Assembly (NCBI GenBank): GCA_946699065.1
Contig: CAMPDV010000008.1
Location: 1,054,001-1,118,000 of the forward strand
Source: Loxodes magnus
Lineage: Eukaryota; Ciliophora; Karyorelictea; Loxodida; Loxodidae
DNA length: 64,000 nt
Reading direction: 5' to 3'
The first letter of the stretch is position 1. Every line of letters begins with the position of its first letter. Made by a program: the position numbers and the translations under genes. Positions 11,627 through 51,675 of this stretch are shown one piece after another. The notes below the pieces were generated by a model. It was not told the origin of the DNA, made no database searches, and was given only the letters and a program-made list of their open reading frames with translations.

Positions 11627-12772
11627 ATGAAATTAGAGTCTTTTAGTGAGGTTGCTATTTATCCTATTCTAATATTAATAATGACCAGCATTTCTATGAT
11701 AAGTACTTTGTTCATGATATTTTGCTATTTCTTTCTGTATGAAATTAGAACTATTTAAAAGACTATTATTAATATCTGAGCTAGTACTAAGTCATTTAAC
11801 TATGTGCTTGTTTTTATTTTTGGAATTAGTAGAGAACATAACTGAAATATAACGTACTTAAACGTCTTTGATCGTATATTTTTAAGCACTATTTGGTACT
11901 TCTATTTCGTTTCTACTAACATAGTTGTAGTTTCTAGCTATTTAATTTGAAAATTTGTTTTTGGTAAGAAACAAAGGATGGGAAAAGTGAAGACGAAGTA
12001 TATAATATATGCATTTTCAATTCCCTTAATCTTTTATTTTCTTATGATGCTCTCTGAAATAGTTTACTAATCCAATGACATGACTAGAAAATAACTACTG
12101 ACACTCCAGATTTTAATATGAATATTTTCTTATTAAATACCTATGTGAATTATGATTTTTTATAACTCTTTTGTTTTGGTAAAGATATCTAACAGTAAAA
12201 TTTAGCAGCAACTGAAGAATCATTCATCTGATTATGAAGAACTTTATGAAAAGAAATTAAGATGAATACCTGTAGCTGATTTAGTTCTTCAGTTCTGTGG
12301 AACTTTTCCTTATTTTTACTTTTTCATGAAATATCTTTTCTTAGATTATAGTCTTTAAAATAAGATTGTTGACTTTTGATTCGGACTAGCAATTTTATGC
12401 TAATGCTCTATTGGAGTAATAAATGCAATTATATATGGTTATAATGTGGATATCAAAAACGAATTTATTTATAAACTAAAAAAGAAAAGATAATCTACAA
12501 GCGAAGAAGGGTAATTGATGTAGAGTAAAAATATGTCAAATAGTTATTTAGAAAGCGATTTTGAAAGAAGCTTTTTGACAATTTAGTTTGATAGCTTAAA
12601 CCAAGTAGAATCATTTGTTCTTTAAAAGGATTTTTATTGTTTATTAATTTTATTTATTCTGTTCTCTTTAACTACTTATACTCGCAAATCTGCTTCTTCA
12701 AGCTAATCTATAAAATATAATCCCAAACTTATATAATTTACCTTCTCAAATATCTTTAAGATTTTTATCTGA
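11627..12772 (+). CDS. Seven-transmembrane (GPCR-like) receptor, copy 1
   Basis: 381 aa, intron-free, ATG 11627 to TGA 12770-12772. Seven hydrophobic segments can be placed: about residues 10-35, 45-70, 90-120, 130-155, 165-195, 225-250 and 260-285. The last one contains SIGVINAIIYGYN, a pattern like the end of helix 7 in cAMP-receptor/secretin-like GPCRs, followed by a charged helix-8-like stretch. A Ser/Gln-rich cytosolic tail ends in an extra hydrophobic stretch (DFYCLLILFILFSL). Closely related to the receptor at 14517-15647. At aligned sites this copy has TGA (11948, 12146) where the other has TGG, and CAG (12107) where the other has TAG. The ligand is unknown. A cAMP-receptor-like GPCR is the best guess, from topology only. 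Confidence 0.8.
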
Positions 12773-14516
12773 AAAAACTTTATAATTTTATCTTTTTACT
12801 TTTTATTTTGTAGATAAAAATTAACTAAATTTTAATTAGGTAGTTAAATCAACTATTTCTTTATAAGACATTTAGTTAAAAATTAATTTTCTTTATCATA
12901 AACTATGCTATTATTAAAGTATTATTTAAGTCGAATGGGCTATAAAAAATCAACAATTTAATAGATAAATTATGATGTATCTTTATCTCCTTAGTATTTA
13001 TAAGCTACCTATTAATATATTTATTTTAGATTTAAGTTATTTAATTATTTTAAGCTATAAAAAGTGTTTAATATAACTTAAATTTATTAAATTATCTCTA
13101 ATTATTCTAATTCTTTATTTTTCTTTTGAAATTTGAAAATGAAAATCTATAAAAAGAAACTTTAACTATTTAGTTTATTTCCACGATTGTTTGTAAAACT
13201 AATGATTAACTAAATACAGTAAACTATTTACTATGCTATATAATTATATTTCTTTTAAATAAAATATTCAAAGCATTTACTTTTTGATCTATTTTTACTT
13301 TACTTATCTATTTTTAATTTTAAGTTTTAGTATTTATATTTAAATGGTTATTGACTCCAAATTTTAGTTTTAGATCTTTCTTTAATTAACTTTAATTAAA
13401 TTTGCTCTTCATATTCTCTAAAAATACTAGAAGTTAAATTATCTTTGAAAGCTTAATGCCTATTTCCTTTATTTGGCAGTATTTAAAATTATTAAGTATT
13501 TATTAAATACCCATATCTACCTTTAAGACAATTGTTTGTGTAGCTACTTAACTATTAAATAACAGGATAATTATCTAAATTCTTTATCAAGTAATAATAT
13601 AAATATATTGCTTAGTATAATAGCAAAGCTAATTTTGGTTGTCCATTCCTTTATATGCTTTATCTAAATAAATAAGGAAATTAATTATAGCTAAATATAG
13701 CTAAAAGTAATTTGTAATAAGTTATGCTCAATTTAGTATAGAACTATCATATATCATTTATTAAGATTTAAATTATAAATAAGAGATTATAATTTACAGT
13801 CTATTAGATCTTTTAACTAGGTACTATTTTATAATGAGCTATGCCTTTATTTTCTTTGTAAGCAGAAACTAGATCTAACTAAATTATTATGCATTAATTA
13901 AATTAATAAAGCTCTGAAGTATGATTTGATATAAGTTGTAAGTTATAATTATAACTAAGCAACTATTAACTAAGCCTTTTTTATGATAAGCAATTAGTTG
14001 CATCAGTAGTACTTTATATTATCTTGTTTAGTCTAATCTTTACAATCATATCACTTTATTTTCATTATTTCTTTACTTTTATCCTTACGAGAAAAACATT
14101 AAAAATCCAATTTAAAGCTTAATAACAAAAAATGAATTAAGTTAGTAACTAAAAAAGGAATCAGTAGATTAAAATTAAATCTAATAATATATTTTCTTTT
14201 AACTTTAAATGCTTAAGATGCATCTAAACCTTGCTTGTTAGATTTAAAGAAGTTGCTTTAACATTAGTCTGTCTGCTGCTTAATCATTTAAGTCATCAAG
14301 CATAAAGAGTTAGAGTAAGAAAAGATATTTCTTAAAATAGCACATGTATCAATTTATTCTCTTCATACTAGCTGAAAAGCATAATATTTTTAAAGCAAGT
14401 GATATAAACCACATTAACATATTTGAATATAAGTTGTGGTAAATATAGCATATGAAAGATAAAGAAAATAAGTAGAATGATAAACTTTCTTTACTTTTCT
14501 TTATTACTTTTATAAA
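12773..14516. other. Intergenic spacer between tandem receptor copies
   Basis: About 1.7 kb, extremely AT-rich. I looked for a third, decayed receptor copy and did not see one. Confidence 0.5.
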
Positions 14517-15647
14517 ATGAAACTGAGTGTTTTTAATGAAGAAGTCATTTATCCTACGCTAATTTTAATAGTTTCTAGTGTTTCTATTGCAAGCACTTTG
14601 TTCATGATATTTTGCTATTTCTTTCTTTACGAAATTAGAACGATTTAGAAGACTGTTATTAACATTTGAGCTTGTACATTAACATGTAACTACATATTGG
14701 TTTTTGTTTTTTCTTTTCGTAAGAACCACAACTGAAATATAACTAATTATGACACCTTAGATCGAGTATTTTTGATAACTATTTGGTATTTCTATTTTGT
14801 TTCTATTAATATAATAGTGATCACTAGCTATTTATTGTGGAAGTTCGTTTTTGGTATGTAAAGATAGATGGGAAAACTAAAAATAAAGTACGTTTTATAT
14901 GCTTTTTCATTTCCCTTAATATTTTGATCTTTGGAGATGGTCTTTGAAATTATTTATCATACAACTGACATGAATAAGAAATAACTTCTGACAAATTAGA
15001 TCCTAATATGAATATTTTCCTATTAAATACCTATGTGGATCATGATTTTATACAACTCCTTTGTCTTAATTAAGATTTCTAATTGAAGGATTTAGTAATA
15101 GTTGAAGAGTCATTCATCTGAATATGAGGAACTTTATGAAAAAAAATTAAGATGATTGCCAGTCACTGATTTGGCTCTTCAGTTCTGTGGAACTCTACCT
15201 TATTTTTGTTTTTTCGTGAAATATCTAATTTAAGATTATAACCTTTAAAGTAAAATTGTTGACTTTTGATTTGGAATAGCGACTTTGTGCTAGTGCTCGA
15301 TAGGGTTTATAAATGCAGTTATATATGGTTATAATGTAGATATTAAAAATGAGTTTATCTATAAGTTAAAAAAGATTAAGCAGGTTACATAATAAGAAAG
15401 CTTATAAAGTATAATGAAAAGGGAAGGGTCTTCTACTAGTTAGCTAGATAGTGATTTTGATAGAAGTATGCTATCAATATAATATGAAGATCTTAAAATT
15501 GTAGATTCCTTCATGTCTTGAAAGATATTTAAGCTTAGACTTTTCTGCTTGGGAATATTTTATTTTATTTTTGCTTAGTACGCTAATACTAGGAATACCT
15601 TATTTTAAATTGATTACTTTACATTTAATTCTCTTTAGGCTTTGTGA
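14517..15647 (+). CDS. Seven-transmembrane (GPCR-like) receptor, copy 2
   Basis: 376 aa, intron-free, ATG 14517 to TGA 15645-15647. Collinear with the receptor at 11627-12772 over its whole length, including the helix 7 motif (IGFINAVIYGYN) and the tail motif SDFDRS/SDFERS, so the two are tandem duplicates. It differs most in the loop after helix 2 and in the cytosolic tail. Trp codons TGG at 14838-14840 and 15036-15038 lie opposite TGA in the first copy; Gln codon TAG at 14997-14999 lies opposite CAG. The tail again ends in an additional hydrophobic segment (FCLGIFYFIFA), so that feature is conserved. Role inferred: surface chemoreceptor coupled to G proteins; ligand unknown. Confidence 0.8.
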
Positions 15648-19270: not shown

Positions 19271-21182
19271 TCAAATATCAAAACATTCTCTTGAAAATAG
19301 ATTGCCATATTTTTGTGCTTGCTATTTTCTTTCATCGTATAGGACTTTTCAACTTGTCTTACTAATGTAGTCATCTATTTCTTTATTAGCAACTAATAAA
19401 AATTAGATCTATATCATTTATTCAAGAACTTTGTATTAGAGATCATATTTTCCTTTCCTATCACCACTTAGTGATGGTCCAGTATTACTCTCTATAAGTC
19501 ATATATTCTCTGTCTTGTCTAGCATTAAATCAACTCCCAAATACTAGAAGGAGTTGTTTTCTGTTTCCTTTATAATTTACCTATTCATAAGCACAAAATG
19601 TAGTAGCTTCGTCTAAATTTACTTTTCAATTCTATCTCAATCAGCTTTTGAATACTCTTTAAACAACTAGAGCATTTCATCAAAAGTAAAATCAGTAGAA
19701 GACTTTTTATAGCTTTCTCTATCTTTCATCTCTGGCCTATGAGTAAGATGAGTCCAAATCTGTATAAATAAATAAACATACATCAAAGGATTCAGGATTA
19801 TAATTATCTATTGACAGACGAATATATCCTGGATGGTATAATGCTATCAAAGGCTTTGAATTAGCAATTAATAAGTAAACTCTCATATCGAATTTTTAAT
19901 TATCCACAGTGGCTGTATTAGCAACATAATTTTATATTATCGTTTCTTTCTAAGATTAAGCTATTTTATTTTTATCGTTTACACATTCAGCTCCATAATT
20001 AAACCATTAGTTTAGCAGTTTCGCTCTATTTTTATCGATGATGAAGATTTATGATCCCTTGTGTTGCATTCCTTTTTGTAGTCATTCTATTTTATTTATT
20101 GACTCTTAAAATAATTCTTGATTCATATATTTAAACCACTCTAAGCATTAGATTTTATCATCTAAGATATAAGTTTTTGGATGGAATAAATCAGCATCAA
20201 AGCAATAATCTTTTCCTATATTTTCCAAATACTCGACATAATCCAGAACATTTTGCTAAATTTTCTTTTTGACTGAAAAGCTTCCTTTTCCAAATTATTA
20301 AGTTCTTTATTATTCGCATGCAAATGTAACTTTATGTATTCATAGATTATCTATTAGCCTTCCCTAAGGATAGAAAATAACTATTTTAGGACTTAATTCT
20401 ATTCATTTTAAATTATTTATTTTTTCTTCCTTAATGACTTTTTAACTTTCAAAAGGCTAACTTTGATTAAGAACTTATCCATATTTTTCGTTTTATTGCA
20501 TTTATCTGTTAGGATTAGAAATTCTTCTCTAATCTAATTTTTCATCCGAAATTTCTTAAACTTATTCAGAAGTTTCGTTATATGAATTAATAAACTTATT
20601 GAAAACATCCCCATATACTTAGGATTTCGAATTTGTAAAGATTACTTATTAAGAATGAGAAATTAGTCCTGTTTCGTTATCAATCTAGAAAGGATTCTCT
20701 TTTCTATATTCTTAAACTTTGTTACAATAGTTAGCGTCAAAATTTATATAATCAGATATAGAGCTAAAGGCTTTTTGTTGACCTTTTACTACTTTTGGTC
20801 CACCTGAAGGGTTTCCTAAATCATATTTAATTCTTAAATTGAAACTTCTTCTCTTTGTTAATTTAGAAAATTAGATATCTCTGTTTATATTAGGGATTCT
20901 CTAATTAATTTGCTAATCTCTCCCTTCTAATAATATTTAAGTGAAATTTTCCTTCTAATCAGTTTATCTCAATATAGTTTATTCATCTCCATCCTACTCA
21001 TAATTAAGTTAAACTCCTTTATTATTAAAATCATTCTGTTCCTTTATTTACCTTTAGATTTAAATCAAGTAATCGTAATCAGGTCTTCACATGAAGGAGA
21101 ACAACTGGTATTTAATTTAGGTGACAAGAGAAATAATGCTGAAAGCAACAATGACAAGTAGAATTAGTTTAAGTTTTCTCAT
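19271..21182 (-). CDS. Tubulin tyrosine ligase-like (TTLL) enzyme
   Basis: 629 aa with one 22-nt intron (19760-19781). The TTL/ATP-grasp core is clear: [20 protein letters not shown] (Trp is TGA 20084-20082), then [20 protein letters not shown] with GYIRLS, then directly across the intron WTHLTH, and finally GVDLMLD and [14 protein letters not shown], with the Glu and Asn that bind Mg-ATP in this family. TTLL enzymes add tyrosine, glutamate or glycine to tubulin tails; which one cannot be told from sequence alone. The N-terminus has a hydrophobic stretch (about residues 4-18) that may be a signal anchor, unusual for a tubulin modifier, followed by 300 poorly conserved residues. I ended it at TGA 19273-19271, the last TGA before AT-rich DNA. 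It is divergent from the CFAP77-like gene with a 332-bp shared upstream region. Confidence 0.88.
19760..19781 (-). other. Intron, 22 nt, in TTLL gene
   Basis: Reads GTATGT...ACAG on the minus strand. Removing it joins NPESFD to the conserved TTL motif WTHLTH, which is otherwise out of frame. Strong homology support. Confidence 0.9.
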
Positions 21183-22630: not shown

Positions 22631-24147
22631 TCAAAACATGTGAGACTTTTCTACTTTTTTTACTGTTCTCCAAATGCAAACGCTAACAAGAATGATCTGA
22701 ATTATAAACTTACTATACCAAAAATAAAGTAAATTACATAAAAAAAGTAGTCATAACTACTCTGGTTTCCGTATTCAGTAATTGAGTTGTTTATTTATTT
22801 AAAGATCTGATCAAATTATTCTTCTTCTTCTTCTTAGTCATCAAGAAATTCGTCAAGATCCTTCTAAAAGTCTTCTAGGTTCTTTTCCTCATTCTAGAAC
22901 TCTTAGCTTATTTACTAAACGTTTTTCGTAATTTAACTTGAGTAGCTCTTTAACTCAGCTGAAGAGATAGGGAAATATTTCTTGACAGTAATATTTAAGA
23001 TTCTTAGCGTTCCTCATATCATCTCTATTGTTTGGTTGATATGTCTAAACTGAACTTTAACCTTTTCTAACTAAGCATTTGTTTCATTTATTAAGTTAAG
23101 AGTTTCTTAATCCACTTATTATGAATTATCTTACTAGGAAACTGCTTAAGTCTATTGACTCTAAGAGTTAGAAACTGTTCCTTTTTGCTAATTTTCATTT
23201 GTCTCTTAATTTTCTGATTTTTATTCTTACTGATTTTGAGTTTCTTAATTCTTAATCTCTTAATTCTGCTTTTCTTAGTTCTTTTATTCCTCAACTTGCT
23301 TTTCTTAATTTTACTGCTAGTTCGTAACTAAAGGCTCTTAGTCAGTTTCCTGCTTTGCTTCTTCTTGCTTTTTCTGGTTTTAGTTATCTTGAGTTAATTA
23401 AGCACTTCCCATTAAATTATCTTCTGAAATAAGGGGGAAATCAGCGTAGTAATTAGAATTAGTGTTATAGAATAAAATTTCTTTTACAAAGTGTAAATCT
23501 CCTTACTCTCCATTCATCGCTGCTAATCCCAAGTAAGTTGTTCCAACTGCAAGAAATCCTTTAAGTTGTAAGCATTTTGAGAAATCTGGATCTGAATCCA
23601 ACTTCTAAGAAACTTCAATACTCTTCCCTTAAATAATTTTAATCTGAAGGTCAAATTCCGTACCAATCAGTTTGCATTGGGATTTGACTCTTCTTCATGA
23701 ACCAAATTCTATGGCTGTAAGCTTTTTATAGTAACTAGCGAAAATGTTTTTCTATTCTACTTCTGTATCAATAGTAATAAGGTATCCTTGTAACTCCTAT
23801 AAACCAAAAATTGGCCCTCCCGTAGTAATTTTATCTAGAGGCTATTAGCTAAGAAAGATTCCAAATCCTTTGCCTTTAGTCTACTAGTTAGACTATCCAG
23901 TGATTTAAAATTATAAATTAATAGTAGCAGAGTCAGTCATAATAGGATTGCTATTTCATATTATTCCATACATATCAGGTTGAGCTATTGTAAGCTGAAC
24001 CTTTTCGTTTATGAATTGGCTAGACCCTACAGTGAGCCAGTTTTTGCTGAAATGTTCTTCATTAGAATTGAAAGAATGCTGTCCTATGAGTTATAGGTGC
24101 TCAGAATATGTCAATACCACTAAAATGAAATAAATTATATTTTTCAT
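22631..24147 (-). CDS. L-type (legume-like) lectin cargo receptor, ERGIC-53/VIP36-like
   Basis: 499 aa after removal of a 17-nt intron. Signal peptide MKNIIYFILVVLTYS, then a beta-sandwich lectin domain at about residues 20-240: HSFNSNEEHFSKNWLTVGSS, the GKGFGIFLSQ strand with GGPIFGLQE, a YLITIDTE strand, and FLAVGTTYLGLA. A roughly 70-residue Gln/Asn/Lys/Glu-repetitive spacer and a coiled-coil segment follow, then a single transmembrane helix spliced across the intron and a short basic tail (WRTVKKVEKSHMF). Type I membrane lectins of this layout carry glycoproteins between ER and Golgi. The KK in the tail may aid ER retrieval, although it is not at the usual -3/-4 position. Ends at TGA 22633-22631. 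Confidence 0.88.
22697..22713 (-). other. Intron, 17 nt, in lectin gene
   Basis: Minus strand GTAAGTTTATAATTCAG. It lies inside the transmembrane helix. Splicing gives YFIFGIIILVSVCIW and a tail ending in TGA; without it the frame continues into low-complexity sequence. Confidence 0.88.
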
Positions 24148-24670
24148 TTTTTTTATTTCTCCTTTTAATTTATCCCCTTTATACCTTCTGTCAAATTATG
24201 ACAGTCTAAATACTTTTAGAGCATCTTATTAGAAACATAGGAAATTTTTAATCTATTAGATTAAAAGCTTTGCAACTAAAGGCTTTCCATCTAATTCTTA
24301 ACTCTTTTATTAGTATCTTTGTCTATGACTGTTAACTAGTATACCTTTGGCTTTTACTACTCTTATAATTACTAGCATAGACTTATTTCTAAATATCTTT
24401 GGCAGATTATCTTCTTATTACTTGCTCTTATAGGAAAGCAGATATATCAATTAAAGATAGAAGGATTTAAATTTCTAAAGTATAGGCGAAATTAAATAAA
24501 TAAGAAGGGAAGTAAGTTGATTAAAACGTACTAACTTGAATAATATAAAAGGCAAGGCAGCAAGATAAAAGGGATACTATCAACTTAAAGAGTAAGTAAA
24601 GTAAATAATACTTATAAGAGCAAACTAGTCTAGTAAGATATCAGCTGCCTTTAATTAGCTGTTTAAATAA
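24148..24670. promoter_or_regulatory. Upstream region of divergent lectin and CH-like giant genes
   Basis: 523 bp between two start codons pointing away from each other. No motif identified. Confidence 0.4.
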
Positions 24671-31724: not shown

Positions 31725-34700
31725 TCAAACTTCATTAGCTTGCTAATTTGCAGTAGCATTCTCTTGTCTGATCATCTCAATGTTAGCATGCTAGCCCTAT
31801 GCCTGCATCTACTGATACTGGTTCACTACTAAGTTATCCTCTAGATGCTAAAAGTTTTCTTAGTCCTGTAATAGAAATCTTACACTCTATTTTGCGAAGA
31901 AATTGAAGATCTATTCAAGAGTTGTTTAGCTAAGGGAATACTCACTTATGGATAAGCTTTGTTTCTATATAATTAAATTAATTTTACGTTATCTTCAATA
32001 AGTCCAAAAATGTAGCCAATGCTTATATTCTCCTGCTTTTCAATTCTATATTTAAAGAAGTTTCCCCAATGCTCTATCAGTTCGAATTTTTTAAAGTAGT
32101 TACTCATTCAATGTTCTATTTAAAGACCTTTAAACTCAATTATACACCATTCAATTAGTCCACTTGTTGATATTGCTCTTTCCTTTTCAACCAAAGCTAG
32201 TAACTATTAGGCTTTTTTGTGCTTTGATTAAATTAGTTAATTTAGGATTCCATAGCCTAACTAATATACTGCTATTTAAGTTTGCTCATAAGGAATTTAA
32301 TCTTGAACTAATACATTTTAGATATTTGGTTCTAGAGCTAAAATTTAAGCTTCTTCAGGGGAGATTATTTTAATTTCAAGTTCATAACCTGATCCAAACT
32401 TATTTTTAATATGCTAAGCTGTACCAATGCACCTTAAATTTCCATTTACTTAGATTGCCATTCTTTCACATAGAGCCTCTGCTTCCTCCAAAGAATGAGT
32501 AGTTAATACCACGGAAGTTCCTTTTTTTGTTATTTTATTAATTATCTATCACATAAACTTTCTAGCCTATGGATCCATTCCAGCTGAAGGTTCATCTAAA
32601 AAGACAACTGGAGGATTACCAATTAGAGCCATTGCCACGTTCAATTTTCTTTTATTACCTCCTGATAAATTTCCTGCTTTTACAAATTCATATTTTTTTA
32701 GATCGAGCTCATTGAGCATATCCTAAACCATTTATGGTATAATTCTTTTAGGTATTCCTTTTATAGTAGCGTATAACTCTAAATGCTCTTTACAGTTCAT
32801 AGGATCGCTGATTGAATTGAATTAAGGACAATATCCTATTTAATAGCGAGCTTATTGCATGTTTGTATTAACGTTAAATCCTCCTATATATGCTTCTCCT
32901 CTTGAAGGAGGAAATTCTCCTGTTAAAATTTTAAAAGTGCTAGTTTTCCCTGATCCATTTGTACCCAGCAGCGCAAAAACTTCATTTTTGTCAACTTTAA
33001 AGCTTACGTTGTTAACTGCTACTGTTACCTTTTTGGAGCAGCAGTTTCCATATATTTTTTAAATGTTTTTGACTAGAATAGATGACTTTTGAGGATCTGT
33101 ATTGAGCACTTAACTAGTCTCTCTAATAACATCATCATCCAAATTTTAATTAGATTCTTAAACCAATTTCTTATCAAACATCCTTCTAAAGCCAGGCCTT
33201 GTAATTAAGTTTTCAACTAAAAATATTAAAACGAAGTAGAATAAACTTTCAATACACAAGTACATTATGCAAGCACCTGCTATTCTAAAATGCCATGCTG
33301 AAGGTATTTCCCTAAATCCTTCTTGGTAAACATAGGTTTCTCTAGATGATATATTTAAGAGGCCATATCCAAAGCTATAGCCTGGAAAGAATCTGAAAAA
33401 GTAGGAAAGTCCTTCATTCACATCTGATGTATGTCCTCCAATTATTCTAAGGATTCAGGATAAAACTGATAGTAAAGAACCTGTAATAAAATGGAAGAAC
33501 ATAGTAAGAGTTTATGCATTTCCTGGTTCTTTAAATAAGAAGGAAGTTAGATAACTCAAGGATGATACAGCTGGTCCATATAAAAAGAATAGAAGTAAAA
33601 CGCAAAACCATGTGGATGCTGAGTCAGTATAAGATTTAACGTTAAATGCAAGAACCATTAAAGCACCAACTAAAGCAGGTAGTATATGCTTTACAATATC
33701 CCAAATATAAGTTGAGCATCAATATGCACCAACACTAACTCCACTAACCATATGTTAATGCTTAATTCCTCCTTCTCTTTCTTTAACTATAAAAGCAATA
33801 AGTGAGGTAGGAATAAAAGCAAGTCCAATGTTAAAGATAATAGCTGAGAAAAAGCCATCTCCTGAATTTTATCTTGATTTTAACCTTTTAGTTAATGGTA
33901 ACGGATCATTTCAAACTTTCATTTGGAATTTTGGATTGTATTACATCAAAATTCCTTACCCTATAGTATTTTAAAAACTAGGCGAAGCTTAATGACCAGT
34001 TGTATTGTGGAAAACAATTACGGAATATTAATCGTTCTATGCTTGAGTAAAATAGAACGATCCCATTCTATACGGATCAATATTTCTTTAATCGAACAAA
34101 TAGGAATCAAATTCAAAAATATCATTAGTATCATTCATTTAATAAGAGCTCAATTCAACATCATCTTTTCAATATGTTTTTATGTTTTGCATTACTTCTT
34201 CTACTAAAATACTTTATTATTAATCCCATAGATTACTGTTATATATTAAATTCTAAGGACTTTTGTATTAGTTTATATTACTTTCCCAAGGAACTTAATC
34301 AACCCAAAAATCTCCTATAAGTTATAGAAGCAGGCCAATAATAACCACAATAATTGGGCAATTAATCTCTAAGCAAATTCCTTTTATATCTCTTTTGCTA
34401 TAGATAATTCTCTTTTTCAGTAGAGCTTTGAAATGAATGAAGAAAATACCTTTCTAAATTCTATCTTTTGTTATATCGAATTCAATATTATTTTTAACAT
34501 CTATCTTTTGATCTTTATTTTCTTCAATTAGAGCATTATCATCTCCAGATTATAATTACTATCTTTCAGATGGCTATTATTCTTATGTCTCTTTATCAAT
34601 CATTTTATGCTTGGCTTTATCTTTCATCTTAGATTTTTCTTCAAGTTATTACTAAGAAGCAGTAACTCTTATTTGAATTTGATTTTCGTTAATAATCTCT

Positions 34701-37384
34701 TTCTGTTCTACTATATCTTCTTCCTTTTTATTTTATGCCTTTTATGTTTCTCCAATACTTACAACTTTTAAAAATACCTCCTCTAAAGTTGTAACTGACA
34801 TTCCATAGGATTAAATCTAGAGATTTTGCAGAGAACTGTCTAAATCTTGAAATAAAAATCTGAATTAACTGCTTTATTCTAATGGAAGTTGCACTTCAAA
34901 ATCTGTTCCTATATTACTTAGTATAATAGGATCGTCAATATACTTTTTTATCAGCTGCATTATTGTTTCTTGAACTTAGATTTTTTAAGAAGAATGAATG
35001 TCATTGTTAAGAACCATTGTCAGATTATATCCTACTCCATATCTATTTTTCAGTCACAACGATCCTCCACAACAACTTAGCTTGCCTTCAGACATAATGC
35101 CAATTCTATCTCCTAAAATATCAGCTTCTTCCATATAATGTGTAGTTAGTATAATTATCTTATTCTCTTTTTTCATCTTTAGCATATCTCACATCATTCT
35201 TCTTGCTGTCAGATCCATTCCACTAGTAGGTTCGTCAAGTAGAATTAAATCTGAGTTTCCTATAAGTGCTAGGCCTAAAGACAACTTTCTTTTTTATCCT
35301 CCACTTAGTTATTTAGTTTTGAAATTAGTTCTATGATTAAGCTTTACATCGTTTATTATTTGCTATACTTATTAGTTTCTTTCTTACTTTTTGGTAATTC
35401 CCTTAAAAACTGCGTACATCTATAAATGCTCTTAGACAGTCATTACATCATACAGAACATCATGCTATGGGCAGACTCCCATTCTTTATCTTATTTCTTC
35501 CTAGTTATCTTAAATATCCTAATTATGGAATAGCATTTATCCTGAAGATGGTTTTATCAATCCTGTTAGCATAGATATACTAGTCGTTTTTCCTGCACCA
35601 TTGTGACCCAGAAGCGCAAAGATTTATCCTTTATAAATAGTCAAATCTAATCCATCTACCGCTGTCTTATTACCAAACTATTTCCTTAAATCTCTTATTA
35701 GTAAAGCATCTCCATTAGACTCCTAAATCTTTAGATTAGCATCTACCTTCTCAATAGTATCTTCATCTACATTCAAGCAAGGCAATACTTCTTTAACCAT
35801 TATTTTCTTTTTCTTACATCAGAAGTCCTTTTAACACAAAAAATACCATTTTTTGGGAGAACCATTTCCGATTGGAAGAACTTAGTCCAAATAGATTCCA
35901 AGAAAAGTAAAAACTAAAAAGTCAATAAAGAAGAACATCAAAGTTAAACCAAATCAGTAGTTATGGTACTAATCTCTTATGCTATCTCACTACATTCCTT
36001 CTTCTCCTGCTTCATATAAACCTAAAGACTCACACCCAAGAGTTAATGCCGTGTTTGGAAGTATAGAAGCTGCTTATTTGTTTTCTAAAGGAATATCTGG
36101 GTTTATAACAGCAAAAGCTATAAAGTAACTGAAAAAGAAAAAGCCAAAGCCTAGCATTGTAGCTATTTTAACTCTGACAAAGAACACACTAATTATTAAA
36201 ATAAGTTACCTGATAAAAACGCTATAGGCTAAAGTGCTTAATCCATAAAGTAAGTAAAATACGAAAATTAGTCCTTTGTCACTGTAAGGAAATATGCTTT
36301 TTCCCGATAGCCCTGTATTCACTAAAGCTATAAAAATGTAAATAACAAAATAAAAAATTAAGTAACTAGACCAGAAAGCGCTATCTGTCATTCCCATCAT
36401 CTTCATATTTTCTTTTATTGTTGTTTCTTTTTCATAAACTAGTTTGGAGAGAAGTCTTGCAAAAGGAACAAAGTAGGAAATTATAAGTAGAAAAGGTAAG
36501 GCTCCTTGTATTATTCCTTAATAAGAGTCTTCCACGTAGTCATCTGAATGGAACGGAACGATGCCTTCTTCAATATAAGCATCTTCGTTCTTTGACATTT
36601 TCTTTATTAAAAAATTCTGAACCAAGTTTTATATGTGTAAATAGCCGATTCTATGGAAATCACTGTGATAATCAAGATTTGGCCCTATAGAAAAAGTATT
36701 GTATGCTTCTCCATCTCAGTTTTTAGTTCATAGAATATCAATGAACTCTTAGTTTTAATCGTAATTAAGAGGATCCGTGTAATTAAAATGAATTCGATAT
36801 TCTATCTCACTTTCTCCATCTCATTTATCTATAGATAAGGCTCACATAACCTTAGGTCCCTCTTCATAGTCTTTACTTCTAACATAATCCTTTATTTCAT
36901 CATAGGAGTTAAAGAATCTAAATTACTAGTTAGATAGAATATTCCCTCCTTCAAATCCTACAGACGTATCTTTATAACTTTTAACTTGCTGCTCAATATA
37001 CCGAGTAAGTTCGTTATCAGGTGCTAGAGCTATAATATTTTGTACATATTGATCAGGAAATGCAAGAGGTAATTTGTTCCACATGAACATTAAATCTCTA
37101 TTGACAGTATAGTAATAGGCTGTTTAATTATCATCAAAAACAGGCTAAGCAGAGTTTTCAATTAATGTAAACTGACTATGTGAAGGAGGTGCAATGAGAT
37201 TCAGATATATAGGAATATAAGCTGCTGCTTTTTTATCCTTTGAATCAATCGCTTAACGAATCAAAATCATCGCGATAACACAAAAGATTGGGAAGAAAAC
37301 TTCGCATATAGAACCTACTGGCTTTCTCTTGAAAATAATTCAGTTCTTTCACAGCAAAGCTCGTAATTAGTTCCAATAGGCCAT
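31725..37384 (-). CDS. Full-length ABCA-family lipid-type ABC transporter
   Basis: About 1871 aa: two halves of membrane domain plus nucleotide-binding domain. The N-terminus (MAYWNQLRALLWKNWIIFKR) is typical of ABCA, with a large loop between helix 1 and the helix bundle. NBD1 (from about residue 555): Walker [11 protein letters not shown], signature [15 protein letters not shown], Walker [13 protein letters not shown], switch [12 protein letters not shown]2 (from about 1430): [46 protein letters not shown]. Both sites look catalytically complete. The C-terminal ABCA motif SQTTLEQIFNFFAKQ appears only after removal of a 23-nt intron (31965-31987); a roughly 45-residue Gln/Asn-rich tail then runs to TGA 31727. 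A second, in-frame 21-nt intron is likely at 36189-36209. ABCA proteins move lipids across membranes; the substrate here is unknown. Confidence 0.95.
31965..31987 (-). other. Intron, 23 nt, in ABCA transporter gene
   Basis: Minus strand GTAAAATT...TATATAG. Splicing restores the conserved ABCA C-terminal motif (LSQTTLEQIF), which otherwise sits in another frame. Confidence 0.92.
36189..36209 (-). other. Probable in-frame intron, 21 nt, in ABCA transporter gene
   Basis: Minus strand GTAACTTATTTTAATAATTAG. It is a multiple of three and has no TGA, so it would be translated silently as QLILIIS. Without it, [19 protein letters not shown] matches the usual ABCA helix better. Confidence 0.65.
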
Positions 37385-47416: not shown

Positions 47417-49688
47417 ATGTCATTGAGGTAATCAATATCTGACTCTAGTTTTTCTCAAAACACTTCTTAAAGTGAAGAATTATTTGACTTGCATAAAGCA
47501 TGTAGAATAGGAGATTTATAAGCTATCAAAAGGTCTCTTTAACTTTTAAAATAAAGCATCAACGAAAGAGACGAAAAATTAGGTTGGGCTCCTCTTTATA
47601 GAACTGTGATATGTGGACATGTTGAGGCTACTAAGTTACTACTTGAAAATGGAGCAGACTGTAATGTAAAAAACCATTTAGGAGAATCATGTTTACACCA
47701 AGCTGCTGATAACTCTCAATATGAAATAGCTAGAATTCTTCTGGAAAATGGAGCTAACCCAGATTTATAGTAAAACGATGGAGATACTCCCTTACATCAT
47801 GCTGCTTTTAGAGGAGATCTAGAAATGATTAAAATACTTCTAAGCTTCAAAGCAAATCCTAATGTATAAAACGTAGTATTCGGAAGAACTCCTTTTCACT
47901 ATGCTATTGATTGTAACCATATAGAGGCAGTTAAGATTATGTTGAAGCATAACGCTAATATATTTATTAAAGACAGATAAGGAAAATCTGCATTCGATCT
48001 AACGAATAATAATGAGATAAAAAGCTTGCTCAAAAAAATCTTCATCTTCGATAAAGTAGAATCAGAGTCTACAACTAGCACTAAACCTTTTACCTTCTAT
48101 GAACAATCCAAGTTATAAGAAAAAGATAATTTGTAACATTTAGTTTACACTCAGTAATGCTAAACGGCTTAGGAATAAGTTTCAAACCAGAAAGAAGAAA
48201 ACATTTAGAGAAATGAGGGGAGTTTTAAAGAGGAACCTTCTCAAGATTGCTAAACTAATAATTTTGATGTGCTATCCTAATAAGATTTGTCTGGTACTGG
48301 TTAATGTATATCGTTTATTAAAGAAGAAGATAGCAAAGATGAAGAAAACTTCGAAGAAAAATAAAGTGAATAGATACAAGAAAGCATTATTAAGGATTAA
48401 GACTTTGAATCTTTAATTTTGTCAGAAAGCTAAGATTTGTATGAGATAAGTTAAAGCGAGGACTTAAATTAAGAAGAAAACAATTAGAATTCTAAGATAA
48501 ATCAAATCACTGAAGGATCATAATTTGATAAATAGTTAGATAGTGAAAGTGTATTTTTTAATGATCCAAGTCATTCTATTCAAAGTGAATTGTCTTTTAT
48601 TACTTCTTAAACATAAAAGGATACATCCATTGCTTCAAAGGGGAATGAATCTGAAGCAAAACCAGTTTAAAGGAAAATATAGGATTCTACTGAAGCTAAT
48701 CCAAATTCTAATGAAGCATCATAAATTAAGAAATAGAAATCAATGAAATCTCCATTCAGTCCTTAATGAGACAAAGGTTTCTAAGAGCAAGATTAGAATT
48801 AAGTAATACCAAAAAGTCCTTTTCAACTTCTGAAAGATTAGAATTTTACCATTAGTTAAGACTAATTATAAGGAAATCTTAAAAATAATTAGCTAACTCT
48901 TGAATCAGAATAAAATTAGCAGCATCAAAGAAACCTTTCTGTTAAAAGCTAGTTTACAGAGTCAGAATTCGAAGCTGTTTCTACTAAAAATACAAGTCCT
49001 TTGAAAAGTTCAAAACTTACAAGAGATCATTAGTTGATGGCAACTTAAACGAGCTTAAGGAATCATGAAGAAATCACTCTCTTTTTAAGACATCTCAAAC
49101 TAGAGTATCTATTGGATAATTTCTTGGAATAGGGTTTTGAGGATGTTTCTTAATTGACAGAAATGATAAAAAAAGGGCTATTAACGGATTAGATCTTAGA
49201 CTAGCTAGGAGTTAAACTTCCAGGACACCGTTGCAGAATTATAACGTTTTTAGAGCAGAAGGCAGGACTTCTGCCAGTTCTTAATAGTAAAAGTACAAGA
49301 AGAAGCACACCAAAGGCTGAAAACAACGGAATATTTTCTTGTTGTAGAAGTGATAGAACAGTCATGAGATAGACATGTAGGTGTTTATTTAGAATTATGA
49401 AATGTTCCTCCAAATCTAGAAGCTTGGTTGATGTAATTAAACATGGAAGAGTACCTAAAGAATTTCTAATAAGTTGGATTTGAAGATTTCGATTGACTGT
49501 TAGCTTAAATGGTAAGCAGATCTCCTCTTACCGATACTATGTTTAAAAACCTAATTAAAATAAATAAGATAGGTCACAGGTAGAAAATTATTATGAAGTT
49601 ACAAGAATGTAAGTCATTCTACAGATAAAGACGCTGTTATAAAGCGTCAGCAACAAGAAGAATAACAAATGATAGCATCGGAAAATGA
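47417..49688 (+). CDS. Ankyrin repeat protein with two C-terminal SAM domains
   Basis: 751 aa after a 16-nt intron (49377-49392). ATG 47417 is followed by a short Ser-rich leader. Four or five ankyrin repeats span about residues 56-220, for example LGWAPLYRTVICGHVEATKL, DGDTPLHHAAFRGDLEMIKI and GRTPFHYAIDCNHIEAVKIM. A 320-residue acidic, Ser/Gln/Glu-rich disordered region follows. SAM1 lies at about 547-615 (ITLFLRHLKLEYLLDNFLEQ ... LPGHRCRIITFL). SAM2, at about 657-715, becomes readable only after splicing (PPNLEAWLMQLNMEEYLKNF ... IGHRQKIIMKL). Ends at TGA 49686. ANK and SAM domains are both protein-interaction modules, and tandem SAM can polymerise; a scaffold is inferred. Confidence 0.85.
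49377..49392 (+). other. Intron, 16 nt, in ankyrin-SAM gene
   Basis: GTAGGTGTTTATTTAG. The shortest intron found here. It brings SAM2 into frame with the rest of the protein. Confidence 0.8.
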
Positions 49689-50232
49689 CAAAAAAGACAA
49701 GAACTGCACTGGATGCTATATAATGTGAGATATTTTGCATTTAATTGTTTGTTTTATATTTAATATTTCTACGTATTTTACACGTAATTTCTCAGTCTAT
49801 TAAAGTGAAATCCTTATGAAAGGTAAAGATTGATTAGATATAATTAAATAATCTAATTAAATATTCGATAACTATAAACCTATTTAGAAACTTTGTAGCC
49901 AATCAAATTATCATAAATAATTAAATTTCCATCGAATCCTTTATTAAAATTTAGAGATTAGAGTATGCTACTATCTTAAGTTTAAGGCCATTAATATTCA
50001 TCAATTACAAAATTAATAAGATTGCACTTTAGTTATGAGGCTTTTCAAAAGTTAATTCATTTTTGATGAAGATCCAGGTCTCTAGTGGATTTAATTTCTA
50101 TACATTAAAGCAGAAATGTTTAGATAAATAAATTAAAGTTAATTATGCACATTTAATGTTTATAAATAGTAGCCTTAGCTTTTTGCCACGTAGTAGCATA
50201 TTTAAATTAGAACTTTTTCCTTTTTATTAATT
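49689..50232. other. Intergenic, AT-rich
   Basis: About 540 bp spacer; nothing specific seen. Confidence 0.5.
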
Positions 50233-51675
50233 ATGGTGCTGGCAAACATCAACGCTGCTGACAAGTTTTATATCTTCGTTAGAAGTTGTATTGGAATTAG
50301 CTTCTTTTATTTCTTTAACTGATATGGAATTTTCGTTTTGTTCTTCGCCTCAATCTTGTATAACTAAGTCATAGCTTTAATATTTGGACTTAGATCAATG
50401 AGTTTGCTAGATTTAGGAATGTTCTGTGAAACTTAAAACAATCCTAATAATATTGGATGTCTCATTAAAATCAAAAAGATCACTTATTAAGAAACGCAAG
50501 AGCTTTGCATAGAAAAGAACATAAAGCCTTTCTCTAAATTCAGAAGTAAACTAGTAAAAATTTTAGGGTCGTTTTATCTAAAGCCTATTACTAATTAGGA
50601 AGCTCTGAAATAGTTAATCAAAGTTGAAGAAAAAATTTAATCAAAATAAGAACTAGAAAGTTTCCTGGAAAAAATAGTGAATGTTCCATTCTCAATAGGA
50701 GAACCTTTTTGGAACTTATATTTCATTGAGAATTATGACCAGTAACATTCAATTCTCATTTATAAAGCTCACCACTATGTGATGGATGGTCTCACAAGCA
50801 CTTTCTTCATTTGTGCTATGAATGATAAATATGACGTTTCAACTGTCCCTGAATTACCATCGATTGGATTTTGGAAGAAAGTCTATATGTCTTTGTTAGC
50901 TCTTTGGTATATTCCTAGAGATCTATTCAACTGTAACTTCTGTAAGAGAGATCATAATCCTATCTCAACTCATAGTTAGTTTGATGGAAGAAAGTCCCTT
51001 ACTCTAGGTAATACCCAATACAAGCTTAATGATATAAAAAAATATGCGAAGGAATTATAAATGACAGTAAATGGATTTATGATGGGTATAATTAGCCAAA
51101 GTATCAAATAATACTTTTTGAAAAAAGGATACAATGGCGATAGTATAAGAATTGTAACTCCTATAAGCATAAGATTCGAAAAGCCTACTTCTGTCGATAA
51201 AATTGATGTAGATAATCTAATTTCCTGCATGATTTACAAATTACCCTTAATAAATGATTTTAAGACTGAAAATAAAACGATCGCAAAAATATCGAATGCA
51301 GTTAGAACATCTCTATCCTGGTTCAGTGCTAATTACATATGCTAGTTTTGGGTTGCAGTATTACCTCTTACTTTGATGTATAATTCAATACTATACATGT
51401 GCAATAAATGCACTCTAATATTTTCAAATGTCGTTGGGCCTAAAAAAACTATCTATGTTCAGGGAAAACCTATAGAAGAAATCTACGGGTTCATAAACGG
51501 AAATCCAGGAATCGGATTATGCATAGTTCTTTACTCCTATAATGATAAAATTAACTTCAACATATTAGCTGACTTAAATAGAGTTGAAAACACTAGAGAA
51601 TTAGCTGACTTAATAGAGAATAACATTAGCACTTTTTCACAAAGTGACATCCATTAACCATTTTATAATAAGTGA
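50233..51675 (+). CDS. Wax ester synthase / diacylglycerol acyltransferase (WS/DGAT)-like O-acyltransferase
   Basis: 480 aa, intron-free, ATG 50233 to TGA 51673-51675 (an earlier TAA at 51655-51657 is read as Gln). The catalytic motif HHxxxDG is present as HHYVMDG at residues 180-186, preceded by LIYKA, as in WS/DGAT enzymes that esterify fatty acyl-CoA to alcohols or diacylglycerol. Helices near residues 13-50 are hydrophobic and may anchor it to the ER or lipid droplets. Further family features are a central IRIVTPISIR strand and a late segment FSNVVGPKKTIYVQGKPIEE followed by GNPGIGLCIVLYSYNDKINF, the N-x-x-GP signature of the second half-domain. Role inferred: neutral storage lipid or wax synthesis. 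Confidence 0.88.

What the first reader, a model, noticed from the sequence alone, without database searches (positions are those of the whole stretch)
11627..15647. Tandem receptor pair proves all three reassigned codons inside the window
The two duplicated seven-helix receptors align without gaps in their cores. TGA at 11948 and 12146 in copy 1 lies opposite TGG at 14838 and 15036 in copy 2. CAG at 12107 in copy 1 lies opposite TAG at 14997 in copy 2, and TAA and TAG replace each other at the conserved Gln after helix 1. Recent duplicates swapping stop-looking codons for standard Trp and Gln codons is direct evidence of TGA=Trp and TAA/TAG=Gln, independent of any database.
Basis: partly seen in the sequence, partly recalled or inferred. 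Interest (0 to 1): 0.75.

Follow-up and report, generated by a model that had tools for sequence, protein, structure and literature searches.

The report
Ciliate receptor pair showing recoded stops
Two neighbouring receptor genes of a ciliate show that its "stop" codons are read as amino acids, a code already described for this kind of organism; the gene ends hint that one further codon, TAA, may sometimes still mean stop.

Summary
Copy 1 (11627-12622) and copy 2 (14517-15518) are paralogous seven-helix receptors, 69% identical, and every codon pair named in the finding is there. They are not recent duplicates: dS is about 1.1, dN/dS 0.18, about 1.0 in the two wrong frames. The window lies in a 705,730,643-base genome that fits the Loxodes magnus macronuclear assembly (706 Mbp). 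Its code, UAA/UAG=Gln and UGA=Trp or stop (NCBI table 27), is published. The pair alone supports TGA=Trp well, TAG=Gln fairly, TAA=Gln weakly. An ABCA-type transporter in the window and H3 histones support the full code. [quoted passage not shown] One point is open: copy 1 carries TAA where its paralogs carry the terminal TGA, and so do two other genes (L009; histone variant L050, with TAA TAA TAA and the next in-frame TGA 168 codons on). UAA may be a residual second stop; transcripts must decide.

The parts
11627..12622 (+). receptor copy 1 (332 codons): seven-helix GPCR-like protein with in-frame 7 TGA, 8 TAA, 3 TAG
12623..12625 (+). TAA at the place aligned with the terminal TGA of copy 2 and L003: candidate UAA stop, or stop loss with the next in-frame TGA at 12770
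14517..15518 (+). receptor copy 2 (334 codons), in-frame 7 TGA, 10 TAA, 7 TAG
15519..15521 (+). TGA, probable stop of copy 2 (TGA in L003 at the same aligned place)
11948..11950 (+). TGA read as Trp, opposite TGG 14838-14840
12146..12148 (+). TGA read as Trp, opposite TGG 15036-15038
12107..12109 (+). CAG (Gln), opposite TAG 14997-14999
11756..11758 (+). TAA after helix 1, opposite TAG 14646-14648
12491..12493 (+).
31985..37321 (-). ABCA-type transporter gene used as an independent test of the code: Q-loop Gln (recalled label) as TAG (35465-35467) and TAA (32822-32824); Trp shared with ABCA1 as TGA (35189-35191 and 32549-32551)

Best explanation
The region is a tandem pair of old, conserved GPCR-type seven-helix receptor genes in the macronuclear genome of the karyorelict ciliate Loxodes magnus (species inferred), written in the known ambiguous karyorelict code. 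Within coding sequence UAA and UAG are read as Gln and UGA as Trp; at the gene end UGA is the usual stop. UGA is most likely read as Trp by a multi-copy tRNA-Trp(CCA) whose anticodon stem has only 4 base pairs (gene and structure shown here; decoding inferred from published work on other species). Nearness to the transcript end tips the balance to release factor (published model, not tested here).
For: Codon pairs and frame. Purifying selection in the correct frame only (dN/dS 0.18 over 332 codons, 0.15 over the ungapped 291; wrong frames 1.00 and 1.06). TGA faces Trp in 8 of 12 unambiguous cells of the trio, TGG in 6 of 6. ABCA-type gene in the window against ABCA1, stop-like codons masked as X: TGA faces Trp in 4 of 7, and TAG and TAA sit at the Q-loop Gln of the two ATPase domains. 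Five H3 genes: TAA faces Gln in 11 of 18, TAG in 10 of 13, CAA in 11 of 18, CAG in 3 of 3. TGA right after the conserved end in 5 of 5 H3 genes and 8 of 11 receptors. Genome size and published code. tRNA-Trp(CCA) with a 27A-43C mismatch; model of termination near transcript ends: passages of PMC4967479.
Against: Copy 1 has TAA, not TGA, at its expected end, which table 27 does not foresee. Against ABCA1 TAA faces Gln in only 5 of 29 and TAG in 3 of 14 (CAA 2 of 6, CAG 0 of 1), so that distant comparison rests on the Q-loops and not on the totals. tRNA-Gln(UUA/CUA) and eRF1 could not be looked up because the search machine did not answer. No transcript or protein data were available.
Confidence: 0.93

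Rival explanations
1. UAA is a second, rare context-dependent stop in this ciliate: copy 1 ends at TAA 12623, and a TGA-to-TAA change at a gene end is tolerated because release factor still reads UAA near the transcript end.
For: Of 41 gene ends examined (11 receptors, 30 histone-fold genes) one, L008, has no clear end; 3 of the other 40 lack TGA at or near the expected end, and all 3 have TAA exactly there: copy 1, L009 (opposite L011's TGA, next in-frame TGA 130 codons on) and H3 variant L050 (TAA TAA TAA where L048 has TGA, next in-frame TGA 168 codons on). No GT..AG stretch of 15-80 nt overlaps the TAA of L009; of 3 such stretches in L050 none of 15-30 nt, one of 67 nt, would bring a TGA within 30 codons. 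Published L. magnus transcripts show UAA, not UAG, depleted over about the last 20 codons.
Against: The same paper calls UGA the only stop. Three cases, found after looking, read by eye. In copy 1 a 24-nt GT..AG stretch would remove the TAA. Chance of meeting no TGA over the gaps is not tiny: 0.48, 0.14 and 0.08 for copy 1, L009 and L050. GC falls after the TAA (0.28 to 0.22, 0.30 to 0.22, 0.40 to 0.17) but it rises after L011's TGA (0.28 to 0.33), so composition does not mark stops reliably. L047 has TAA at the same place as L050 but a TGA five codons on. Pseudogenes are not excluded for L009 and L050.
Confidence: 0.42
2. Copy 1 lost its stop: TAA 12623 is Gln and the protein runs 49 codons further to TGA 12770, or a 24-nt intron is spliced at the end of both copies so that both end at the later TGA (12770 and 15645).
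For: Both copies have GT..AG stretches of 24 nt at the same aligned place; the tails give a weak protein score, reached by 36 of 1000 shuffles.
Against: Tail DNA is no more alike than shuffles (score 19, shuffle mean 22). L003 has TGA at the place (codon 336) and no other in-frame TGA before codon 554. Introns of a length divisible by three are depleted in L. magnus.
Confidence: 0.4
3. The frames with stop-like codons are pseudogenes of a standard-code organism.
For: No table-11 ORF of 150 aa or more in 64 kb, ORFs running off the ends not counted.
Against: dN/dS 0.15-0.18 with wrong-frame controls at 1.0; histones and an ABCA gene with the same codons at Gln and Trp sites.
Confidence: 0.01

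Closest known systems
Karyorelict nuclear code, NCBI table 27 (Loxodes; Parduczia)
   Same: UAA/UAG read as Gln, UGA as Trp inside genes and as stop at the end; tRNA-Trp(CCA) with 4-bp anticodon stem reported for Loxodes
   Different: three gene ends here show TAA in place of the terminal TGA
Condylostoma magnum code (all three codons both sense and stop)
   Same: sense meaning of the three codons; context-dependent stop; a UAA stop would match (passages)
   Different: no TAG at an expected end among the 40 clear ends read; TGA is the stop in nearly all
Blastocrithidia nonstop code
   Same: all three codons reassigned, UGA=Trp with a 4-bp-stem tRNA-Trp, UAA also a stop (abstract, passage)
   Different: UAR is Glu there and Gln here
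GPCR superfamily in ciliates (families A, B, E and F reported; passages)
   Different: no Pfam family reached its cut-off and no PDB sequence matched copy 2, so the class is unassigned

Membership tests
Karyorelict code (NCBI table 27) | UAA and UAG encode Gln | tested here: met
   H3 genes: TAA opposite Gln 11 of 18, TAG 10 of 13, CAA control 11 of 18; Q-loop Gln as TAG and TAA. Receptor trio alone inconclusive for TAA
Karyorelict code (NCBI table 27) | UGA encodes Trp inside genes | tested here: met
   8 of 12 unambiguous cells in the receptor trio; 4 of 7 against ABCA1
Karyorelict code (NCBI table 27) | UGA is a stop | tested here: met
   5 of 5 H3 genes end GERT-TGA; read by eye, 29 of 30 histone-fold genes have TGA at or within five codons of the expected end and 8 of 11 receptors at the homologous end
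Karyorelict code (NCBI table 27) | UGA is the only stop | tested here: inconclusive
   copy 1, L009 and L050 carry TAA at the expected end
Karyorelict code (NCBI table 27) | tRNA-Gln(UUA) and tRNA-Gln(CUA) genes | not tested
   the pattern search was sent and never answered
UGA decoding by 4-bp anticodon-stem tRNA-Trp(CCA) | anticodon CCA with the 27-43 pair broken | tested here: met
   ATCGA/TCGAC around CTCCAGA in every copy readable in L073-L083 (C67 array), my hand reading gives 27A-43C; the 5' half of the C148 copies was not fetched
UGA decoding by 4-bp anticodon-stem tRNA-Trp(CCA) | no cytosolic tRNA-Trp(UCA) | tested here: inconclusive
   no UCA among the 100 listed of 128 matches; 28 not listed, and only this pattern was searched
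Condylostoma-type code | all three codons also serve as stops | tested here: inconclusive
   TGA yes, TAA possible, TAG not seen at the 40 clear ends read
GPCR | seven-transmembrane fold | tested here: met
GPCR class E (cAMP receptor-like) or any named class | sequence match to a class profile | tested here: inconclusive
   11 of 11 family members without a Pfam match above cut-off; no PDB sequence match for copy 2
GPCR | couples to a G protein | not testable with these tools
   needs an assay

The most novel reading that the evidence does not exclude
In Loxodes UAA is a second ambiguous codon: Gln inside genes and a rare stop near the transcript end. Copy 1 of the pair, whose closest paralogs end at UGA, is a natural stop-codon swap (UGA to UAA) tolerated by selection, so the Loxodes code lies between table 27 and the three-way ambiguous Condylostoma code, and the published scarcity of UAA just before stops has its explanation.
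Probability: 0.42. Interest if true: 0.6.

Novelty: already known. Interest (0 to 1): 0.33.

Why it matters
The code itself is published, so the pair is a neat worked example rather than a discovery. What could matter is the end of copy 1. If UAA still ends translation in Loxodes, then two codons are ambiguous there and not one, which bears on how stop codons are reassigned and how nearness to the transcript end selects termination. Paralog ends give a simple way to look for that. The high copy number of the 4-bp-stem tRNA-Trp(CCA) gene also raises the question whether dosage helps it to compete at UGA.

Tried and rejected
Rejected: pseudogenes (dN/dS and frame controls); recent duplication (dS about 1.1); proof of TAA=Gln by the pair alone. 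The full 11-member alignment was too diverged to score codons: best scores Tyr for TGA, Lys for TAG, Gln (negative) for TAA, and Tyr for the TGG control too. My first alignment of copy 2 was one base out of frame and useless (corrected), and the Pfam scan of copy 2 used that wrong start; one search scanned the right frames of all 11 members. In one search five minus-strand loci were read on the wrong strand; one search corrected that. Pfam, Rfam and tRNA scans of the pair or window gave nothing useful for identity. The Foldseek and VIA-align rows mix several GPCR classes (class names recalled), so they do not give a class; dictyostelid cAMP receptors, which I had expected, were not among the rows shown. 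A first tRNA-Trp pattern was too strict and gave 0 matches. The comparison with ABCA1 covers six printed blocks and one domain of the second ATPase half; it left out one block (query 306-404, one stop-like codon) and all that the output had cut. The census of gene ends was read by eye; L047 was counted as TGA because a TGA follows five codons after its TAA, and L008 was left out as unclear. Searches for Rab GTPases (PF00071), tubulin (PF00091) and tRNA-Gln did not complete, and eRF1 (PF03463) was sent once (not completed).

Full report
What was checked. I aligned the two genes codon by codon. Copy 1 starts at 11627 and copy 2 at 14517. Every pair in the finding is present: 11948 TGA/14838 TGG, 12146 TGA/15036 TGG, 12107 CAG/14997 TAG, 11756 TAA/14646 TAG; three more TAR/CAR swaps lie at 12206/15096, 12209/15099 and 12491/15381. 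Shuffling the codon order of one copy 20,000 times gave means of 0.08 TGA:TGG and 0.35 TAR:CAR pairs against 2 and 4 observed, and 0.67 same-class stop-like pairs against 12; the largest values in any shuffle were 2, 4 and 5. Some stop-like codons face other residues, as expected of diverged paralogs.

Selection. By the Nei-Gojobori count under the recoded table, copy 1 and copy 2 have dS 1.14, dN 0.20 and dN/dS 0.18 over 332 codons. Over the ungapped 291 codons the ratio is 0.15, and in the two wrong frames 1.00 and 1.06. The frame is therefore real and under purifying selection, but the duplication is old.

Where it lies. The window is G000:C8:1054001-1118000 of a genome of 705,730,643 bases in 7843 contigs. 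The published Loxodes magnus macronuclear assembly is 706 Mbp, and the same paper states that karyorelicts use NCBI table 27, where UGA is the only stop and can also encode Trp (passages and section 9 of PMC11441545). The code paper it cites (Seah et al. 2022) I saw only as a reference; it did not come up in my listings and I did not look it up by id. The species is an inference from size and code.

How far the pair proves the code. In the trio of copy 1, copy 2 and a third paralog L003 on contig C19, TGA faces Trp in 8 of 12 unambiguous cells, and the TGG control in 6 of 6. TAG scores best as Gln (45; Glu 40). TAA does not single out Gln (Glu 18, Lys 18, Gln 16). So the trio supports TGA=Trp, supports TAG as Gln or Glu, and needs help for TAA.

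Independent help. An ABCA-type transporter gene lies on the minus strand at 31985-37321. With stop-like codons masked as X, its alignment with ABCA1 puts TAG and TAA at the Gln of GVCPQ and GYCPQ (the Q-loops, a recalled label) and TGA at Trp in 4 of 7 cells, including the corresponding Trp of both ATPase domains. Over the blocks compared, TAA faces Gln in 5 of 29 and TAG in 3 of 14 (one TAG faces Trp); CAA faces Gln in 2 of 6 and CAG in 0 of 1, so Gln columns are poorly conserved at this distance. Five H3 genes are clearer: TAA faces Gln in 11 of 18, TAG in 10 of 13, CAA in 11 of 18 and CAG in 3 of 3, against a recalled human H3.1.

Stops. TGA stands right after the conserved C-terminus in 5 of 5 H3 genes (GERT-TGA) and, read by eye, at or within five codons of the expected end in 29 of 30 histone-fold genes (the search reported 31 matches and gave 30 loci). 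Of 11 receptors, 8 have TGA at the homologous end, copy 1 and L009 have TAA there, and L008 has no clear end. In the histone set, L050, an H3 variant, reads GEKHLTDM-TAA-TAA-TAA with the next in-frame TGA 168 codons on, where its paralog L048 reads GEKQLTDV-TGA. L047 reads GEKHLTDM-TAA and has TGA five codons on. So 3 of 40 clear ends lack TGA and all three have TAA at the place. GC falls after L050's TAA from 0.40 to 0.17, after copy 1's from 0.28 to 0.22 and after L009's from 0.30 to 0.22, but it rises after the TGA of L011, so this is weak. No GT..AG stretch of 15-80 nt overlaps the TAA of L009; in L050 none of 15-30 nt was found and one of 67 nt would bring a TGA 22 codons past the old end; in copy 1 a 24-nt candidate leads only to the TGA at 12770. 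Published introns are mostly 25 bp or shorter. The tails behind the two receptor copies do not align as DNA (score 19, shuffle mean 22) and only weakly as protein (36 of 1000 shuffles reach the score). The chance of meeting no TGA over these gaps is 0.48, 0.14 and 0.08 for copy 1, L009 and L050, so the long gaps alone prove little; the weight lies in TAA standing at the exact place in all three. The published depletion of UAA, but not UAG, over about the last 20 codons fits a residual UAA stop. I rate it about 0.42. My literature searches that bear on UAA stops in Loxodes (listings, and passages of PMC11441545, PMC4967479 and PMC6935857) showed no report of one; PMC6935857 gives UGA as the stop and UAR as Gln in Loxodes.

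tRNA. A pattern for the anticodon and T arms of tRNA-Trp has 128 matches in G000 and 5 for the reversed control. Of 100 listed, 98 are identical over the 30 matched bases with anticodon CCA, 48 in an array on C67 (spacing about 187 bp) and 50 on C148 (spacing mostly 241 bp); one other lies on C12 (no tRNA called there by ARAGORN) and one on C110. In the C67 loci ARAGORN calls tRNA-Trp(CCA). The stem is ATCGA/TCGAC in every copy readable there, so by my reading pair 27-43 is A-C and four pairs remain. A 4-bp-stem tRNA-Trp in Loxodes is already reported (passage of PMC13092985, citing Swart et al. 2024, which is not held). I did not search print for the size of the array; the genome paper's main text has no occurrence of the word tRNA.

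Verdict. Observation confirmed; meaning of the codons right and already known; "proof" and "recent" overstated. The end of copy 1 is the part worth a second look.

Noticed in passing
G000:C67:482.3-491.2 kb (L073-L083) and C148:155-169 kb: Two tandem arrays hold 98 listed tRNA-Trp(CCA)-type matches, identical over the 30 matched bases; the C67 copies have a 4-bp anticodon stem. The dosage might favour UGA decoding.
   Followed up: partly
G000:C78, C103, C158 and other contigs (L012-L041 fetched): tRNA-Lys(UUU) genes, often with tRNA-Ala(UGC), lie in many near-identical, partly tandem copies, so amplification of tRNA genes is not limited to Trp.
   Followed up: no
L050 (G000:C327:221690-222034): H3 variant ends in TAA TAA TAA with the next in-frame TGA 168 codons on; its paralog L048 ends in TGA.
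   Followed up: partly
L059 and L060 (G000:C243:292627-292941 + and 303439-303753 -): The same divergent H3-like protein is encoded twice in opposite orientation about 11 kb apart; a 590-nt stretch around the gene start is identical.
   Followed up: no
L063 and L064: Histone-fold genes that look like NF-YC (name and its conserved Trp recalled) carry TGA where NF-YC has Trp, another likely TGA=Trp case.
   Followed up: no
window 19725-21017 -, 22765-24177 -, 47561-49462 +, 50230-51627 +: Further genes readable under the recoded table: tubulin-tyrosine ligase family, legume-like lectin, ankyrin-SAM protein, wax ester synthase/DGAT.
   Followed up: no
window 51655-51675 +: The WS/DGAT gene seems to end ..SDIH-TAA-PFYNK-TGA, a TAA six codons before its TGA, inside the zone where UAA is reported to be rare.
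   Followed up: no
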